Assembly (NCBI GenBank): GCA_030649775.1
Contig: JAUSFR010000013.1
Coordinates: forward strand, 1 to 35,161
DNA: 35,161 nucleotides
Reading direction: 5' to 3'
Origin: a bacterium
GTDB taxonomy: Bacteria > Patescibacteriota > Minisyncoccia > Phycocordibacterales > UBA10002
The notes beneath the pieces were generated by a model. That model was not told the DNA's origin, did no database searches, and saw nothing but the letters and a program-made list of their open reading frames with translations. Of this stretch, positions 2,488 to 35,161 are shown piece by piece. Both the position numbers and the translations under genes were made by a program. Within the stretch, counting starts at the first letter, position 1. Each line of letters starts with the position of its first letter.

Positions 2488-2522
2488 AAAAGGGCTGTCC
2501 TAACGGATAGCCCTTATTTTTT
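2488..2522 (+). terminator. Rho-independent terminator after proB-like gene
   Basis: AAGGGCTGTCC-TAAC-GGATAGCCCTT followed by ATTTTTTG. Confidence 0.8.
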
Positions 2523-2538
2523 GTTGTATGATTACCGT

Positions 2539-3588
2539 ATGAAAATCCTTATAGCGACAGGCATCTACCCTCCCGATATTGGAGGCCCGGCGCAATACGC
2601 CCGTGGGGTAGAGGAGGCATGGAAAAAAGAGGGGCACCAGGTAAAGGTGCTCGCGTTTTCCGCCGTTTGTCGGACAGGAGTTTTGAACTGGAAACTCCCG
2701 ACGGGTATTCGTCACCTCTACTACTTTTTGCGAGTACTCTGCTCGCTCCCCGGCACTGACTTTGTGTTTTCTCCCGACACCTTCAGTGCGGCGTTTCCCG
2801 CGCTTCTTGCCTGCAAACTGTTCAGAAAGAAACTTATCATCCGAACCGGAGGCGACTTCCTGTGGGAGCAGTATGTGGAGCGGACAGGAGACTTGGTATT
2901 GCTCAAAGATTTTTATGTTACGCACGTCAAACGGTTCAATCGGAAAGAGAAAATTATTTTCTCGCTTCTTCGGTTTCTGTTTCGGCACGTGGCCGCCACT
3001 ATTTTTAGCACCGCGTGGCAACGGGACATTTTTGAAAAGCCCTACGGCCTGAATCTCAAGAAGTGCTTTATTGTGGAGAACCAATATGGTCAGCAAACAC
3101 CACATCTAGAACATACTGACAAACTTAAGAATGTTGGTATGTCCAAGGTGTTTGTGGGGGGAACGAGAGAACTCCGATGGAAGAATCTCGCGCGTGTGCA
3201 GGAAGCGTTTGCAAAGGTGCAGAAAAAGGGACTGCCGGTTTCGCTAGTGCTCCAGACAGGAAGTCACGGGAAGTTTTTGATGGATATTGAGGAAAGTTAT
3301 GCGGTCATTCTTGCTTCGCTTGGCGATATTTCCCCCAACACCATTCTTGACGCTATTGCCCTCGGCAAGCCGTTCATTCTCACCCGCGAGACGGGCCTCT
3401 ATGACAAGCTGAAAGATATTGGCGTCTGGGTCAATCCCGAAGATGTAAGTGACATCGCGGAGAAAATTGAGTGGCTGTCGGACGCCCGTAATTACGAGGC
3501 ACAGTACGCAAAAATCCAGGCATATAGCTTTACTCACAGCTACGAGCAAATTAGTAACGAAATCATGAATATATATGCGCGTACTTAA
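2539..3588 (+). CDS. GT4-type glycosyltransferase
   Basis: MKILIATGIYPPDIGGPAQYARGVEEAWKKEGHQVKVLAF; start trimmed from ORF-track M at 2377 because the extra 54 aa overlap proB and its terminator. Confidence 0.85.
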   Translation: MKILIATGIYPPDIGGPAQYARGVEEAWKKEGHQVKVLAFSAVCRTGVLNWKLPTGIRHLYYFLRVLCSLPGTDFVFSPDTFSAAFPALLACKLFRKKLIIRTGGDFLWEQYVERTGDLVLLKDFYVTHVKRFNRKEKIIFSLLRFLFRHVAATIFSTAWQRDIFEKPYGLNLKKCFIVENQYGQQTPHLEHTDKLKNVGMSKVFVGGTRELRWKNLARVQEAFAKVQKKGLPVSLVLQTGSHGKFLMDIEESYAVILASLGDISPNTILDAIALGKPFILTRETGLYDKLKDIGVWVNPEDVSDIAEKIEWLSDARNYEAQYAKIQAYSFTHSYEQISNEIMNIYART

Positions 3589-20164: not shown

Positions 20165-20728
20165 TCAAGACGTCTTTTTAAAATGGTCGGTGATAAGATG
20201 GAACACCATCATATGGATATCTTCCACCACTCCGTAGTCGTTACTTTCGACGACGAGGCAGTCATCCACGAGTTTCTTTGCTTTTCCTCCCTCAAACCCG
20301 AACATTCCGAATGTGTCCACCCCCATCGATTGGGCAACCCGTATAGCTTCCAAGATGTTTGGCGAATTTCCGCTCGCGGAAATCGGGATAAATATATCAC
20401 CCTTTTGTGCAAAGTTCTTGAGTCCCTCGGAGAATACATAGTCGTACCCCGCGTCGTTCCCCCATGCCGTGAGGAGTGGTACATTGTCGCTTAAGCATAC
20501 GGCTCGTATTCCTTTTTTGGCTTTCCCTACAAGAATGGTTTTGCCCAAATCACACGCGATATGCGAAGCGGTGGCCGCACTCCCGCCGTTTCCGGCAAAG
20601 AAAACGCGTGTACCCCCTTTGAGCGCCTTTCCAAGTTTTTGCTCCAAGCGCGCAATCTTTTGCGCGTCAATCGTGTCCAGCGTCTTTCGTAGTCGGCTCA
20701 AGTAGTGTTGTGGATTGAATGCGCTCAT
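20165..20728 (-). CDS. gmhA: SIS-domain sedoheptulose 7-phosphate isomerase-like
   Basis: GTRVFFAGNGGSAATASHIACDLGKT, SASGNSPNILEAI, DIHMMVFHLITDHF. Confidence 0.88.
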   Translation of the reverse strand: MSAFNPQHYLSRLRKTLDTIDAQKIARLEQKLGKALKGGTRVFFAGNGGSAATASHIACDLGKTILVGKAKKGIRAVCLSDNVPLLTAWGNDAGYDYVFSEGLKNFAQKGDIFIPISASGNSPNILEAIRVAQSMGVDTFGMFGFEGGKAKKLVDDCLVVESNDYGVVEDIHMMVFHLITDHFKKTS

Positions 20729-21708
20729 TCGTGAATGAAGATTATTTTACTACCTTCCGGCTCAAAGCAGACCGGTACAGGTCGAAGTTTTGGAAGCGCC
20801 TTTACAATGGCCTCGTGTCTTTCGAGAGGAGCGTAGAACATTAAAAAACCTCCGCCTCCCGCGCCGAGCACCTTACCGCCGAGTGCGCCATTTTGTCGGC
20901 CTACGGTATACCACCTGTCTATGTCGGGGGAGGTGATACCCGTCGCCATCTCTTTCTTGTACATCCAACCGGTATGCAAAATGTCTCCGATACCGCCAAG
21001 CGCATTTTTTTGGAGTTCGGTATGAAAGTCGTGAGCGAGCGCGACCATTTTTTTCATCAGCGTGAAGAGCTTTTTGTTTTTGTCTAAATTCGCACTTTGC
21101 TCCGAGAGCACACCCGACGCCTTTCGGCTAATTCCCGTATAGAGGAGCAAAATGTTCTTCTCAAGGTCGCGTTTGGTATTGGGAAGGCACACCACCGGAT
21201 GGACGCTCACGCGATGGTCTTCGTGGAACAACATCTTGTTAAACCCGCCGTACGCTACGCTGTGCTGGTCCTGTCGCCCGATAGGCTCTTTCAGTATATC
21301 CATCTCAATTTCGCAGGCTTGCTTCGCGAGTGACCTCGGCGAGCTAAACTGCCGATTGTACGCCTGGAGGGCGTTTAAGAGTCCCACCGTAAAGGCGCTT
21401 GAGGAGCCAAGGCCGGTGCCCTTTGAGGGGATATCGGCAATGGAGGTGATTTCCACTCCGCCCGGGATATTTAGTTTTCGGAGCACTTCGCGGACAATCG
21501 GGTGCTTGATACGCTCGGGCCTTCTCACATTTTCTGTTTTGGAGTAGCTTAACCGAATGTCGCCATCAAATTTCTTGTTGACGGTCACGTAAATATATTT
21601 ATCAATCGTGCTCGTGATGACCGCGCCTTCGGACCGCTCATAAAAAGACGGCAAATCGCTTCCGCCACCGACAAAACTCATTCGCAGGGGTGTTTTGGAA
21701 ATAATCAT
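20725..21708 (-). CDS. hddA: GHMP kinase, D-glycero-D-manno-heptose 7-phosphate kinase-like
   Basis: MIISKTPLRMSFVGGGSDLPSFYER, GTGLGSSSAFTVGLLNAL, GRQDQHSVAYGGFNKMLF, GALGGKVLGAGGGGFLMFY. Confidence 0.88.
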   Translation of the reverse strand: MIISKTPLRMSFVGGGSDLPSFYERSEGAVITSTIDKYIYVTVNKKFDGDIRLSYSKTENVRRPERIKHPIVREVLRKLNIPGGVEITSIADIPSKGTGLGSSSAFTVGLLNALQAYNRQFSSPRSLAKQACEIEMDILKEPIGRQDQHSVAYGGFNKMLFHEDHRVSVHPVVCLPNTKRDLEKNILLLYTGISRKASGVLSEQSANLDKNKKLFTLMKKMVALAHDFHTELQKNALGGIGDILHTGWMYKKEMATGITSPDIDRWYTVGRQNGALGGKVLGAGGGGFLMFYAPLERHEAIVKALPKLRPVPVCFEPEGSKIIFIHE

Positions 21709-22723: not shown

Positions 22724-22757
22724 AGCCAATCTTTCCACGCGAAGATTGGCTATTTTC
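22724..22757. terminator. Terminator hairpin shared by converging genes
   Basis: AGCCAATCTT-TCCACGCG-AAGATTGGCT followed by ATTTTCTT; overlaps stop of the minus-strand gene at 22750-22752. Confidence 0.75.
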
Positions 22758-24078
22758 TTAGAATGAAATTGACTGCTCGTAGCAAATCTTTTTTCAGCGT
22801 GATAGGAATACGGTTTTTGGTGCTTGCGACATCAATGTCTTTACATCCGTAACCCGTTTTCACTCCCACAAACGGAACTCGGGCGTTTCCGGCCGTTTCG
22901 GCATCACGAAGACTGTCTCCCACAAAGTAGCTTTTCTTCACATCTATATTGAGTTCCTTTACCGCCCGCTCTAGCATCCCCGTTTTTGGCTTTCGACAAT
23001 CGCACGCGATTTTATATTTTTTGTTTTCTCCTTTGAACCCCTTGTCCGGATGGTGCGGGCAAAAATAAATGCCGTCCAGTTTTGCCCCCTCACGGCCGAG
23101 AAGCGTTTCCATTTTTTTATGGATGTGGAGCACGTCGTCAAATGAACACAAGCCCTTGGCCACCACCGGCTGGTTGGAAATCACCACCGCGAAGTAATCA
23201 CTCGCGTTGATGCTTTGTATAGCTTTCGCGACATCAGGCAAGAGTTCAAAGTCTTGTGGGTGGTGCAGGTTTCCCACTTCCTTATTGATGACCCCGTCAC
23301 GGTCCAAAAAGATTGCCGGTCGTTTGTGTTGAAGGCTCATTTTGCCAAATCTACCGCTACGGACATCACGGTTAACCTCGCGAAGCCTCTCTGGGGTACC
23401 GATATCTTTTATGTATTCGGGAGTGAAGTAGGCGACAAAGGAGTTTTTCTGTGTGCGTAGGGTGTTTGGAAACACATCACGTCCAAAGTCCGCGTGCGTG
23501 CCTTCCGGTATATACTCAAAAATCTTTGGGGTGAGCACGTAGAGTGGAGTGCTCACCAAATTGCGAAACCAGAGTTCGGGAGAATGAGGCTTGGTCAAGA
23601 ATGACAAGATAAGATTGTCGGAGCTCATTTCCACGAGGTTGCTGTCCATCGGGTGGTCGTTTGGATGTACCGCGAGAGTACCAACAAGCGTCTTGTGTTT
23701 CACTTTTTGACGCGCGTGAAAAGCGAGCAGACGCTTGAGGTCCACCTGCATAAGCTCATCTCCATAGAGCACCAAGAAGTCCGTGGTCAAATGCTTTTCC
23801 GCCGACTTTACGGCTCCCGCGGTACCGAGCGGTAAATCCTCCGAAAGACAACGGATGGAGAGGCCAAAACGAGACCCGTTCCCGCAGAATTTCTCTATGT
23901 GTTCTCCGAGGTGGTTCGTTAGTATAAAAACGTTCTTAAACCCGTGCGACTTGAGGAGGTTTAATTGGTATTCGAGCAGGGGTTTGCCGGCAATGGGGAG
24001 GAGGGCTTTGGGTACGCGCCTACCGCGCTCGCCCATTCGTGTTCCTTTTCCTCCCGCGATGATAACCGCCGTGTTCAT
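22750..24078 (-). CDS. Fusion: nucleotidyltransferase (HddC-like) + HAD D,D-heptose 1,7-bisphosphate phosphatase (GmhB-like)
   Basis: N-term AVIIAGGKGTRMGERGRRVPKALLPIAGKPLLEYQ; C-term AIFLDRDGVINKEVGNL...SNQPVVAKGL...YFCPHHPDKGF...CDCRKPKTGML...YFVGDSLRDAETAGNA. Confidence 0.92.
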   Translation of the reverse strand: MNTAVIIAGGKGTRMGERGRRVPKALLPIAGKPLLEYQLNLLKSHGFKNVFILTNHLGEHIEKFCGNGSRFGLSIRCLSEDLPLGTAGAVKSAEKHLTTDFLVLYGDELMQVDLKRLLAFHARQKVKHKTLVGTLAVHPNDHPMDSNLVEMSSDNLILSFLTKPHSPELWFRNLVSTPLYVLTPKIFEYIPEGTHADFGRDVFPNTLRTQKNSFVAYFTPEYIKDIGTPERLREVNRDVRSGRFGKMSLQHKRPAIFLDRDGVINKEVGNLHHPQDFELLPDVAKAIQSINASDYFAVVISNQPVVAKGLCSFDDVLHIHKKMETLLGREGAKLDGIYFCPHHPDKGFKGENKKYKIACDCRKPKTGMLERAVKELNIDVKKSYFVGDSLRDAETAGNARVPFVGVKTGYGCKDIDVASTKNRIPITLKKDLLRAVNFILRK

Positions 24079-32456: not shown

Positions 32457-33443
32457 ATGTCATCCCCCATCATCATCAGCCGGACACCGTTTCGCCTTTC
32501 ACTCGGAGGCGGTTCTACCGACCTGCCTTCCTACTATGAAAAGCACGGTGGATTTGTCTTTGGCGTTGCCGTCAATCTGTATATGGATGTGTTTGTGAAA
32601 GAGCCTCGCTCCGACGACCTCGTGCACGTGCACTACAAACATTTTGAATCGGTCTCACACGCGAAGGAGGTAACGCACGACATCGCGAGGCAGGCGCTGT
32701 TGATGCGAGGCCTTACCACCAAAGTCGCCATTTCGTTTAAAGCCGACACTCCGGCGGGCACGGGGCTCGGTTCATCGGGTGCGTGCGCGGTCGCGGTGCT
32801 GAAGGGTCTCGCACTCTACCAGAACAAAAAGCTCTCCAATCGCGAGGCGGCGGAGCAATCATTCCTGCTCACCAAGGCGCTCGGACTTCCCGATGGCGTG
32901 CAGGACCCGTACATCTGCGCCGAAGGAGGGTTTGTGGCACTCACGATTGAGAAAAACGGAAAAGTGAAGGTAGAGAAGCCCCGCATCGCGAAGAGTACCG
33001 TAGAGGAATTTTTCGCGAACAGCATCTTCTATTACACCGGTGTCGTGCGGGAGAGTAAACAACTTCTTGCCGAACAAGACGCGACCAAAGTACAGGAGCT
33101 GAAGCACCGCACCAAAGATATCGGTAGGGAAGTCTACAAGGCGTTTCGTTCGGGAAAGCTCCACCACTTTGGCAAGCTCATGGATGAGCATTGGCATATC
33201 AAAAAGCAGATGTCTTCCAAAATGAGCACAGACCGCTTTGACGAGATATACGCGGAGGCCATACGCGCAGGAGCACTCGGTGGGAAAATTATGGGCGCGG
33301 GAGGCGGTGGCTATTTTATGTTTTACTGTCCCACGCGGAAGGCGAAACGCGCCGTACAAAAAGCGCTCGGGAGGTTCAAGATGCGCGAGATGCACTTTGA
33401 GATTGATACCAAAGGTGCGCGTACCCACATCATCACGCCGTAA
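32457..33443 (+). CDS. GHMP kinase, HddA-like (second paralog)
   Basis: IIISRTPFRLSLGGGSTDLPSYYEKHGG, AGTGLGSSGACAVAVLKGL, PDGVQDPYICAEGGF, GALGGKIMGAGGGGYFMFY; ORF-track M at 32448 is 3 codons upstream. Confidence 0.9.
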   Translation: MSSPIIISRTPFRLSLGGGSTDLPSYYEKHGGFVFGVAVNLYMDVFVKEPRSDDLVHVHYKHFESVSHAKEVTHDIARQALLMRGLTTKVAISFKADTPAGTGLGSSGACAVAVLKGLALYQNKKLSNREAAEQSFLLTKALGLPDGVQDPYICAEGGFVALTIEKNGKVKVEKPRIAKSTVEEFFANSIFYYTGVVRESKQLLAEQDATKVQELKHRTKDIGREVYKAFRSGKLHHFGKLMDEHWHIKKQMSSKMSTDRFDEIYAEAIRAGALGGKIMGAGGGGYFMFYCPTRKAKRAVQKALGRFKMREMHFEIDTKGARTHIITP

Positions 33444-33450
33444 GTTTTAA

Positions 33451-33993
33451 ATGTTAATGAAAACAGAAGCAAAAAAACGAGCGGTCTTTTTTGACCGCGA
33501 TGGGGTTATCTTTAAACCCATCGTGATGGATGGGCGTCCTCGGGCGCCACACAGCATTGTGGAGTACAAGACACTGTCCGGAATTATGCCTGGAGCAAAA
33601 GAAGCTGTGGAAAAAGTTAAGGCACTCGGCTTTCTCGCGATTCTGGTGACGAATCAACCGGACATCGCGTACGGTGTTATTTCAAAAAAAGAGTGGGAGT
33701 GGGTACAGAGTCAGTTAAGCAGTATCCCGTTTGACGATATTTTTATTTGCTTTCACCGTCGGGACGATAATTGTGAATGTATGAAGCCCAAACCCGGTAT
33801 GCTTCTTGAGGCGGAAAAGAAATGGAATATAAACCTTGCGAAGTCGTTTATGGTGGGGGATACGGAGAGTGATGTCCTCGTTGCAAAAGAAGCCGGATGC
33901 AAAAGTATTCTGGTGGACGCGCCCTATAATTCCAGCGTTTCTAGCGATATGCGTACTCATTCTCTTTCCGAACTTTCAAACCTCTTGTCTTAG
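33451..33993 (+). CDS. HAD-family GmhB-like phosphatase (second copy, stand-alone)
   Basis: AVFFDRDGVIFKP, LVTNQPDIAYG, ICFHRRDDNCECMKPKPGML, FMVGDTESDVLVAKEAG. Confidence 0.88.
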   Translation: MLMKTEAKKRAVFFDRDGVIFKPIVMDGRPRAPHSIVEYKTLSGIMPGAKEAVEKVKALGFLAILVTNQPDIAYGVISKKEWEWVQSQLSSIPFDDIFICFHRRDDNCECMKPKPGMLLEAEKKWNINLAKSFMVGDTESDVLVAKEAGCKSILVDAPYNSSVSSDMRTHSLSELSNLLS

Positions 33994-34177
33994 AGCCTGT
34001 TCATAATCTAACCGCATTATAGACCTAGGACATAGCTTGCCTGCCGAAATGTTCAAAATTCTGCTACAAATCGCGTCTTTTTCGTCAGCGTACTTGGGTA
34101 CGCTTCCTCAAAATCCGCAATTTTCGCAACGAATTTTTAACATTTCATTCAGGCATTAGATTATGAACAGGCTCTTA
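33990..34177. mobile_element. 188-bp MITE-like fold-back element
   Basis: Terminal IRs GAGCCTGTTCATAATCTAA / TTAGATTATGAACAGGCTC (19 bp perfect), TTA on both flanks, interior also imperfectly palindromic around GCGTAC-TTGG-GTACGC. Confidence 0.8.
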
Positions 34178-34187
34178 GAATATTAAA

Positions 34188-34889
34188 ATGAAAGCCATTA
34201 TTCTTGCCGCGGGTGAGGGGAAACGGATGTTACCGCTCACTCTAAAAACTCCCAAACCCCTCCTCATAGTCGGAGGGAAGACGGTGCTTGACCATATCTT
34301 TGAAGCCTTTCCCGAAGAAATTACGGAGGCGATTATTGTCGTGAAGTATTTGGAGGGAAAAATCAAAGACTATTGTGGTGATGTCTTTCATGGAAAGAAA
34401 GTCCAGTACGCAGAGGGGAGCGAAAAAGGAAACGCATTTACTTTTCTTTCTGCGAAACCCTTTGTACAAGAAAACGAACGGGTGATGGTACTCTATGCCG
34501 ATGAAATCTCGAGTCCAGCGAATATGAAAAAATGTCTTGCCCACCAGTACAGCTGGCTCTGCAAAGAAACCGCACGGCCGAAATCGGCAGGCGTGGTGAA
34601 ATTAAGAGATGACGGGACGATAGAGGAAATAGTGGAGAAATCCGAAAACCCTCCGTCAAATCTCGCGGCGATTGGTCTCATGGTGCTTTCGGGGGAAGTA
34701 TTCGGATACGAACCGGTGCAAAATGCGAACGGCGAGTATTACCTTTCATCTATGATGGGCGAGTTTTTGAAGAAAGAAAAAGTGTACGCGGTGGTAACCG
34801 AGGGAGGATGTTCGCTAACGGTCCCCAGCGATATACCGAAGGTTGAAGCGTTTCTCAAAGCAAGAAACAGTAATGAAACGGCACACTAA
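34188..34889 (+). CDS. Sugar nucleotidyltransferase, HddC-like (second copy, stand-alone)
   Basis: MKAIILAAGEGKRMLPLTLKTPKPLLIVGGKTVLDHIFEAFP, VMVLYADEI. Confidence 0.9.
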   Translation: MKAIILAAGEGKRMLPLTLKTPKPLLIVGGKTVLDHIFEAFPEEITEAIIVVKYLEGKIKDYCGDVFHGKKVQYAEGSEKGNAFTFLSAKPFVQENERVMVLYADEISSPANMKKCLAHQYSWLCKETARPKSAGVVKLRDDGTIEEIVEKSENPPSNLAAIGLMVLSGEVFGYEPVQNANGEYYLSSMMGEFLKKEKVYAVVTEGGCSLTVPSDIPKVEAFLKARNSNETAH

Positions 34890-34957
34890 CGAGTTATAGT
34901 AGATACGCTTAACGAATAGCGCACACGAATGGGAACTTTATACTTGTATATAACGAT

Positions 34958-35161
34958 ATGAAGAATATAAAAGCTTTCAAAACAAGGATTTTCGCGGACG
35001 GGGCCGAGAAGGGCGCAATGCTCGCGCTCGCGAAGAACCCCCTCGTCAAAGGTTTTACGACAAACCCGACGCTTATGCGAAAGGGCGGGGTGAGTGACTA
35101 TGTCGGCTTTGCCAAAGAGATTATTTCCGTCATTGCGGACAAGCCAATTTCGTTTGAGGTA
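34958..35161 (+). CDS. Transaldolase-family protein (3' truncated by window)
   Basis: MKNIKAFKTRIFADGAEKGAMLALAKNPLVKGFTTNPTLMRKGGVSDYVGFAKEIISVIADKPISFEV, typical transaldolase N-terminus; open to window end. Confidence 0.8.
   Translation, partial: MKNIKAFKTRIFADGAEKGAMLALAKNPLVKGFTTNPTLMRKGGVSDYVGFAKEIISVIADKPISFEV

What the first reader, a model, noticed from the sequence alone, without database searches (positions are those of the whole stretch)
32457..35161. Second, divergent heptose-type module with a transaldolase as a possible source of sedoheptulose 7-phosphate
A second HddA-like kinase, stand-alone GmhB-like phosphatase (shortened Zn loop CFHRRDDNCEC), stand-alone nucleotidyltransferase and transaldolase lie in tandem. 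No second GmhA is visible before the window ends. The two kinases and phosphatases are clearly diverged, so the locus may make two different activated heptoses or related sugars. Transaldolase can form sedoheptulose 7-phosphate without a full pentose phosphate pathway.
Basis: partly seen in the sequence, partly recalled or inferred. Interest (0 to 1): 0.65.

Follow-up and report, generated by a model that had tools for sequence, protein, structure and literature searches.

The report
Transaldolase-fed activated higher-sugar cassette
The end of this window holds one copy of a widespread but apparently unnamed gene set that seems to build an activated seven- or eight-carbon sugar for surface coats, with its own transaldolase as first step, and related sets occur in bacteria, archaea and phage-like viral contigs.

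Summary
Kinase (32457-33443), GmhB-type phosphatase, nucleotidyltransferase and a contig-truncated transaldolase are there. The window is a whole contig of a ~0.92 Mb Taylorbacteria-like Patescibacteria genome; its end overlaps contig C83 by 8 bases in frame, completing a 238-aa transaldolase (TIGR02134, 322 bits, cut-off 282). C83 also carries the 'missing' GmhA-like isomerase 2 kb on.

The transaldolase is not a housekeeping gene: 6 of 13 congeneric genomes have it, always in the sugar locus; in other members a different transaldolase sits with PGI and 6PGDH. Related loci across bacteria and archaea show a cassette kinase-NT-SIS-GmhB-transaldolase (SIS within 10 kb in 70 of 80); 55 of 58 viral contigs carry cassette partners.

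Both window kinases fall in a clade split from characterised HddA, and cassette isomerases carry HDEH where all 30 canonical GmhA sampled have HEQH. Four archaeal genomes with the transaldolase lack detectable transketolase, so erythrose-4-P should be absent there. Gene content matches the lincomycin octose pathway (LmbR/N/P/K/O). Best reading: a dedicated C7/C8 sugar cassette, octose slightly favoured, carbon number unproven. Lmb sequences could not be obtained for comparison.

The parts
32457..33443 (+). kin2: GHMP sugar kinase, relative of HddA; predicted anomeric (C1) kinase of a terminal sugar phosphate
   Evidence: Pfam GHMP_kinases_N/C; NF049969 137.6 bits vs FKP 93.3; PDB best 3k85 HddA 1.7e-35; in the transaldolase-linked kinase clade, with genus relatives 100/99
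33451..33993 (+). gmhB2: HAD-IIIA (GmhB-type) phosphatase, predicted to remove the terminal phosphate
   Evidence: TIGR01656 98.1 bits over cut-off 84; GmhB models below cut-off; DxD and Zn ligands conserved; E. coli GmhB 3l8e 1.3e-14
33993..34174 (.). MITE-like insert, 17-bp terminal inverted repeats GAGCCTGTTCATAATCT, target duplication TTA at 33990-33992 and 34175-34177; its first base completes the gmhB2 stop codon
   Evidence: sequence; repeat ends and second copy on C83
34188..34889 (+). nt2: sugar-1-phosphate nucleotidyltransferase (RmlA/GlmU-type), predicted to make the NDP-sugar; nucleotide not predictable
   Evidence: NTP_transferase 1.6e-22; best NCBIfam TIGR03992 135 bits, HddC only 44.6
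34958..35161 (+). TAL2: transaldolase, N-terminal 68 aa; remainder on contig C83 (L003 3-521)
   Evidence: 8-base overlap in frame; joined 238 aa, TIGR02134 322 bits; nine catalytic or substrate-binding residues conserved
20725..21708 (-). kin1: module 1 kinase of the same transaldolase-linked clade
   Evidence: 42% identical to the Methyloglobulus cassette kinase; tree
20165..20728 (-). gmhA1: module 1 SIS isomerase with the HDEH site
   Evidence: TIGR00441 112.6 bits, cut-off 209; site HDEH
22750..24078 (-). module 1 nucleotidyltransferase-GmhB fusion
   Evidence: an ortholog (458 bits) next to a TIGR02134 transaldolase in a Nealsonbacteria contig, L111
24212..25255 (-). GalE-like epimerase/dehydratase, 48% identical to the epimerase that opens the widespread operon

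Best explanation
The four genes are part of a self-contained cassette that makes an NDP-activated higher-carbon sugar for a surface glycan. The transaldolase moves a three-carbon unit from fructose 6-phosphate onto an aldose phosphate (ribose 5-phosphate giving octulose 8-phosphate, or erythrose 4-phosphate giving sedoheptulose 7-phosphate); a SIS isomerase (SIS2 on C83) makes the aldose phosphate; kin2 phosphorylates C1; gmhB2 removes the terminal phosphate; nt2 makes the NDP-sugar, used by the nearby glycosyltransferases. Module 1 is a diverged second copy of the same cassette that lacks a transaldolase and can share this one. Shown: gene content, linkage across phyla, family placement, conserved active sites. 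Inferred: each reaction, the carbon number and the nucleotide. I favour the octose route slightly over the heptose route.
For: Linkage: SIS within 10 kb in 70 of 80 TIGR02134 loci, GmhB in 57, kinase in 45, NT in 43, across many bacterial phyla and archaea; 6 of 10 hits in evenly drawn genomes lie in the cassette and a 7th beside classical heptose genes; 55 of 58 viral contigs carry cassette partners. Dedication: genus members with a pentose-pathway transaldolase have another gene next to PGI and 6PGDH; Methyloglobulus and an Akkermansia-labelled MAG carry a second, larger transaldolase besides the cassette one. Chemistry: catalytic residues D14 N36 E67 K93 N119 T121 R150 S181 R183 kept in the 101 aligned (roles from knowledge of TalC-type enzymes). 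Octose leaning: the same enzyme set makes GDP-octose in lincomycin synthesis (PMC4351081 Table 2; LmbR uses ribose 5-phosphate, PMC5854111); four archaeal genomes with the cassette transaldolase lack transketolase; isomerase site HDEH, not HEQH; kinase clade apart from HddA, 99/98.
Against: No Lmb sequence could be compared. This genome has a split transketolase, so erythrose 4-phosphate and sedoheptulose 7-phosphate are possible here. In one genome of the same order the same transaldolase family sits next to a RfaE-domain-II adenylyltransferase and an HEQH GmhA, i.e. a classical heptose setting (L165). nt2 is not closely related to the NT of the widespread operon (25% over a short stretch), and the window's SIS2 and gmhA1 sit on long branches.
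Confidence: 0.72

Rival explanations
1. Classical activated heptose: transaldolase makes sedoheptulose 7-phosphate, the isomerase is a GmhA, and the product is an NDP-glycero-manno-heptose; two modules make two heptoses.
For: HddA, GmhB and GmhA are the nearest characterised relatives; transketolase present in this genome; TIGR02134 transaldolase next to RfaE domain II and HEQH GmhA in L165.
Against: No enzyme reaches a heptose equivalog cut-off; kinase clade separate from HddA; HDEH site; transketolase absent from four archaeal genomes carrying this transaldolase.
Confidence: 0.38
2. The transaldolase is the cell's pentose-phosphate enzyme that merely happens to lie in the sugar locus.
For: It is the only transaldolase in this genome; the genome has a transketolase; TIGR02134 relatives in lactobacilli, Treponema and Streptomyces lie outside such cassettes.
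Against: Absent from most of the order (4 of 148) and phylum (3 of 380); found in the genus only within the locus; present as an extra copy in genomes with another, larger transaldolase; linked to the cassette in archaea, bacteria and viral contigs.
Confidence: 0.1
3. The kinase/NT pair activates a hexose or 6-deoxyhexose (fucose/mannose type) and the transaldolase is unrelated.
For: nt2 resembles RmlA/GlmU-type enzymes; FKP is a secondary match of the kinase.
Against: HddA model scores higher than FKP (137.6 vs 93.3 bits); FKP lies far outside the kinase clade; terminal phosphatase, SIS isomerase and transaldolase would have no role.
Confidence: 0.05

Closest known systems
Lincosamide octose pathway (LmbR, LmbN, LmbP, LmbK, LmbO; then LmbM, LmbL, LmbZ, LmbS) of Streptomyces lincolnensis
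   Same: Transaldolase, isomerase, kinase, phosphatase and nucleotidyltransferase in one cluster (PMC4351081); the widespread operon also carries epimerase, nucleotide-sugar dehydrogenase and oxidoreductase genes
   Different: Glycan loci, not antibiotic clusters, in nearly all cases seen; no lincosamide synthetase genes noted; sequence relationship to Lmb proteins untested; window lacks a close match to the operon's Gfo/Idh and NT
GDP-D-glycero-D-manno-heptose pathway (GmhA, HddA, GmhB, HddC)
   Same: Same enzyme superfamilies for isomerase, kinase, phosphatase, nucleotidyltransferase
   Different: Dedicated transaldolase; HDEH instead of HEQH isomerase; kinase in a separate clade; NT not HddC-like
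TIGR02134 transaldolase family (S. aureus/Coxiella type)
   Same: Member by curated cut-off (322 vs 282 bits)
   Different: Genomic role: cassette gene rather than pentose pathway; no solved structure found closer than TalC/FSA-type enzymes

Membership tests
TIGR02134 transaldolase | curated whole-protein score of 281.95 bits | tested here: met
   joined protein 322.1 bits; relies on the C76-C83 join
TIGR02134 transaldolase | Schiff-base lysine and phosphate-binding residues | tested here: met
   K93, R150, S181, R183 and others kept in the 101 aligned rows
GmhA sedoheptulose-7-phosphate isomerase (TIGR00441) | score over 209.45 bits | tested here: not met
   gmhA1 112.6, SIS2 85.9, Methyloglobulus cassette SIS no NCBIfam match at 1e-15
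GmhA sedoheptulose-7-phosphate isomerase (TIGR00441) | metal/catalytic site H-E-Q-H | tested here: not met
   30 of 30 canonical GmhA HEQH; gmhA1, SIS2 and 82 of 85 rows without the two PDB references HDEH
HddA heptose-7-phosphate kinase (NF049969) | score over 600 bits | tested here: not met
   kin2 137.6, kin1 158.2; the cut-off is very strict
HddA heptose-7-phosphate kinase (NF049969) | groups with characterised HddA in a tree | tested here: not met
   three PDB kinases on one side, 52 linked kinases on the other, 99/98; unrooted
HddC guanylyltransferase (NF049965) | score over 300 bits | tested here: not met
   nt2 44.6 bits
GmhB-type HAD-IIIA phosphatase | HAD-IIIA/histidinol-phosphatase-domain score, DxD, Zn ligands | tested here: met
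   TIGR01656 98.1 over 84.15; TIGR01662 71 over 44.6; ligands. GmhB-specific cut-offs not met
Lincosamide-type octose pathway | co-located transaldolase, isomerase, kinase, phosphatase, NT | tested here: met
Lincosamide-type octose pathway | closest sequence relatives are LmbR/N/P/K/O | not testable with these tools
   no S. lincolnensis sequence reachable; 395 genomes drawn from the class of an actinobacterial carrier gave one further cassette, L163
Lincosamide-type octose pathway | ribose 5-phosphate as acceptor | not testable with these tools
   indirect only: transketolase-less archaea
Pentose-phosphate housekeeping transaldolase | conserved in the lineage independent of the cluster | tested here: not met

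The most novel reading that the evidence does not exclude
A lincosamide-like octose route (transaldolase on ribose 5-phosphate, HDEH isomerase, dedicated kinase clade) is a general, hitherto unnamed source of C8 sugars in surface glycans of bacteria and archaea, and related sets with a glycosyltransferase are carried by phages known only from metagenomes.
Probability: 0.42. Interest if true: 0.8.

Novelty: new variant of a known kind. Interest (0 to 1): 0.62.

Why it matters
Octoses are known mainly from lincosamide antibiotics; a widespread cassette would mean that C8 (or transaldolase-fed C7) sugars are a common, overlooked building block of microbial surfaces, including those of Patescibacteria whose coats are almost unstudied. 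The HDEH/HEQH signature gives a simple way to separate these loci from true heptose loci, which annotation currently blurs (generic names such as 'galactokinase' and 'SIS domain protein' in Lawsonia), and every step can be tested with five small soluble enzymes.

Tried and rejected
Literature: no paper found that links transaldolase with a heptose/glycan cassette of this kind (open-access library only, all 10 searches used). The original LmbR/LmbN and LmbK/LmbO papers are not held. A Streptomyces-centred genome search was not possible; the class-wide draw found no recognised lincosamide cluster. Considered and rejected: shortened Zn loop as a sign of a new phosphatase (common); HisB-type histidinol phosphatase (score lower than GmhB models); transaldolase as a pentose-pathway gene. 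No structure prediction was run, since sequence already settled the folds and coordinates cannot be inspected.

Full report
What is there. The window is a complete contig (C76) of a 916,745-base, 88-contig genome. The window ends inside the transaldolase; its last eight bases TTGAGGTA are the first eight of contig C83, the reading frame continues, and the joined 238-residue protein scores 322 bits against TIGR02134 (cut-off 282) with matching profile halves. C83 then carries a HAD hydrolase, a Gfo/Idh oxidoreductase, a GmhA-like SIS isomerase (2490-3149), a GT2, an epimerase and a methyltransferase.

Is the transaldolase part of it? In 13 genomes of the genus, a full-type TIGR02134 gene occurs in this genome and in five others, each time within a variable sugar locus with relatives of gmhB2, nt2, kin2 or a SIS isomerase. 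In the transaldolase-bearing genus members without it, a different transaldolase is found: in the G002 locus examined it lies beside PGI and 6-phosphogluconate dehydrogenase, and in the G004 locus examined beside methyltransferases. It occurs in 4 of 148 genomes drawn from the order and 3 of 380 from the phylum, this genome included. Methyloglobulus and an Akkermansia-labelled MAG carry a second, larger transaldolase in addition to the cassette one. The housekeeping rival is therefore unlikely, although in this genome it is the only transaldolase and could serve both ends.

A cassette across phyla. Within up to 10 kb, 70 have a SIS isomerase, 57 a stand-alone GmhB, 45 the kinase and 43 the NT. 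A frequent order is GalE-like, nucleotide-sugar dehydrogenase, SDR, Gfo/Idh, kinase, NT, SIS, GmhB, transaldolase, seen in Methyloglobulus, on a Rhizobium jaguaris plasmid and, rearranged, on a Lawsonia plasmid, where the kinase is annotated as galactokinase. These 80 were picked for similarity to the window's protein, so the fairer number is from evenly drawn genomes: of ten hits outside the centre genomes (L115-L117, L123-L125, L127-L129, L162), six lie in the cassette, one beside classical heptose genes, three in neither. TIGR02134 relatives of about 48-52% identity in lactobacilli, Treponema and Streptomyces lie outside cassettes.

Why not simply heptose. The GmhA-like proteins of both window modules and 82 of the 85 non-reference rows carry H-D-E-H at the four positions that are H-E-Q-H in all 30 canonical GmhA sampled and in the two PDB enzymes. 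The cassette isomerases form a deep group apart from canonical GmhA; gmhA1 and SIS2 sit on long branches and their exact place is unsure. Kin1 and kin2 both belong to a clade of 52 transaldolase-linked kinases split from three PDB HddA-type kinases at 99/98, and FKP is remote. The NT is not HddC-like. In contrast, a genome of the same order has the same transaldolase family beside a RfaE-domain-II adenylyltransferase, an HEQH GmhA and a KdsD-like isomerase (L165), which shows that the family can also be found in a true heptose setting.

Octose lead. Lincomycin's sugar is made by LmbR (transaldolase), LmbN (isomerase), LmbP (kinase), LmbK (phosphatase), LmbO (guanylyltransferase), followed by LmbM, LmbL, LmbZ and LmbS (PMC4351081; PMC12945683). 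LmbR joins ribose 5-phosphate with a three-carbon unit from fructose 6-phosphate or sedoheptulose 7-phosphate (PMC5854111). The cassette has the same enzyme set and similar accessory families. An independent hint: Methanospirillum stamsii and three other archaeal genomes that carry the transaldolase have no Transketolase_N match, although the control archaea do; without transketolase there is no known source of erythrose 4-phosphate, while ribose 5-phosphate is present in every cell. This is absence evidence from draft genomes and holds for those archaea, not for this genome, which has a split transketolase. No Lmb protein sequence could be reached, so membership in the octose pathway is not claimed.

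Viral contigs. Of 58 IMG/VR contigs with a related transaldolase, 55 have one or more cassette partners; 54 of 55 rows of the isomerase alignment, which includes one cellular cassette reference and one canonical GmhA, are HDEH, and the nine transaldolase residues are kept throughout. Several contigs share the order CTP-transferase-like, SIS, GmhB, transaldolase, glycosyltransferase, kinase, followed by PhoH-like and exonuclease genes of phage type. Only two hits (Staphylococcus phages) came from the 50,697 phage records at 1e-30. IMG/VR can include host DNA, so the phage origin is shown for the examined contigs only.

How it most likely works. Transaldolase makes a C8 (or C7) ketose phosphate; the SIS isomerase makes the aldose phosphate; the kinase adds a C1 phosphate; the HAD enzyme removes the terminal one; the NT makes the NDP-sugar; glycosyltransferases use it. 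Shown: content, linkage, family placement, conserved residues. Inferred: all reactions, carbon number, nucleotide, and the sharing of one transaldolase between two modules.

Noticed in passing
window 33993-34174; L033 4646 onward (C83 about 24646): MITE-like element with 17-bp inverted repeats and TNA target duplications in two copies in this genome; in the window it lies between gmhB2 and nt2 and its first base completes the gmhB2 stop codon, possibly trimming the protein's end.
   Followed up: partly
L167-L224 (IMG/VR), e.g. L212 4490-8719, L214 4460-8722, L202 4455-8695: Phage-like viral contigs carry a compact set CTP-transferase-like, SIS (HDEH), GmhB, transaldolase, glycosyltransferase, kinase next to PhoH and exonuclease genes; almost absent from cultured-phage records.
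   Followed up: partly
L163 85-14739: An actinomycete locus combines the cassette (epimerase, dehydrogenase, Gfo/Idh, SIS, GmhB, transaldolase, kinase, NT) with a class IV aminotransferase, two FkbM methyltransferases and LuxC: a candidate natural-product cluster with a higher sugar.
   Followed up: partly
L165 3-3731: Same transaldolase family beside RfaE domain II, HEQH GmhA and KdsD-like isomerase in a Patescibacterium of the same order: a classical heptose setting.
   Followed up: partly
L082 16034-18081; L054, L060, L063, L087, L094, L097, L099, L110: A cassette variant without a nearby kinase, with epimerases and in L082 a TPP-dependent E1 alpha/beta-like pair (by eye, not family-searched).
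   Followed up: no
L024 11109-12656, L025 1939-3471, L027 2318-3976: Cobalamin-binding radical-SAM-like proteins (by eye) recur near the cassette in genus relatives and are not seen in the window module.
   Followed up: no
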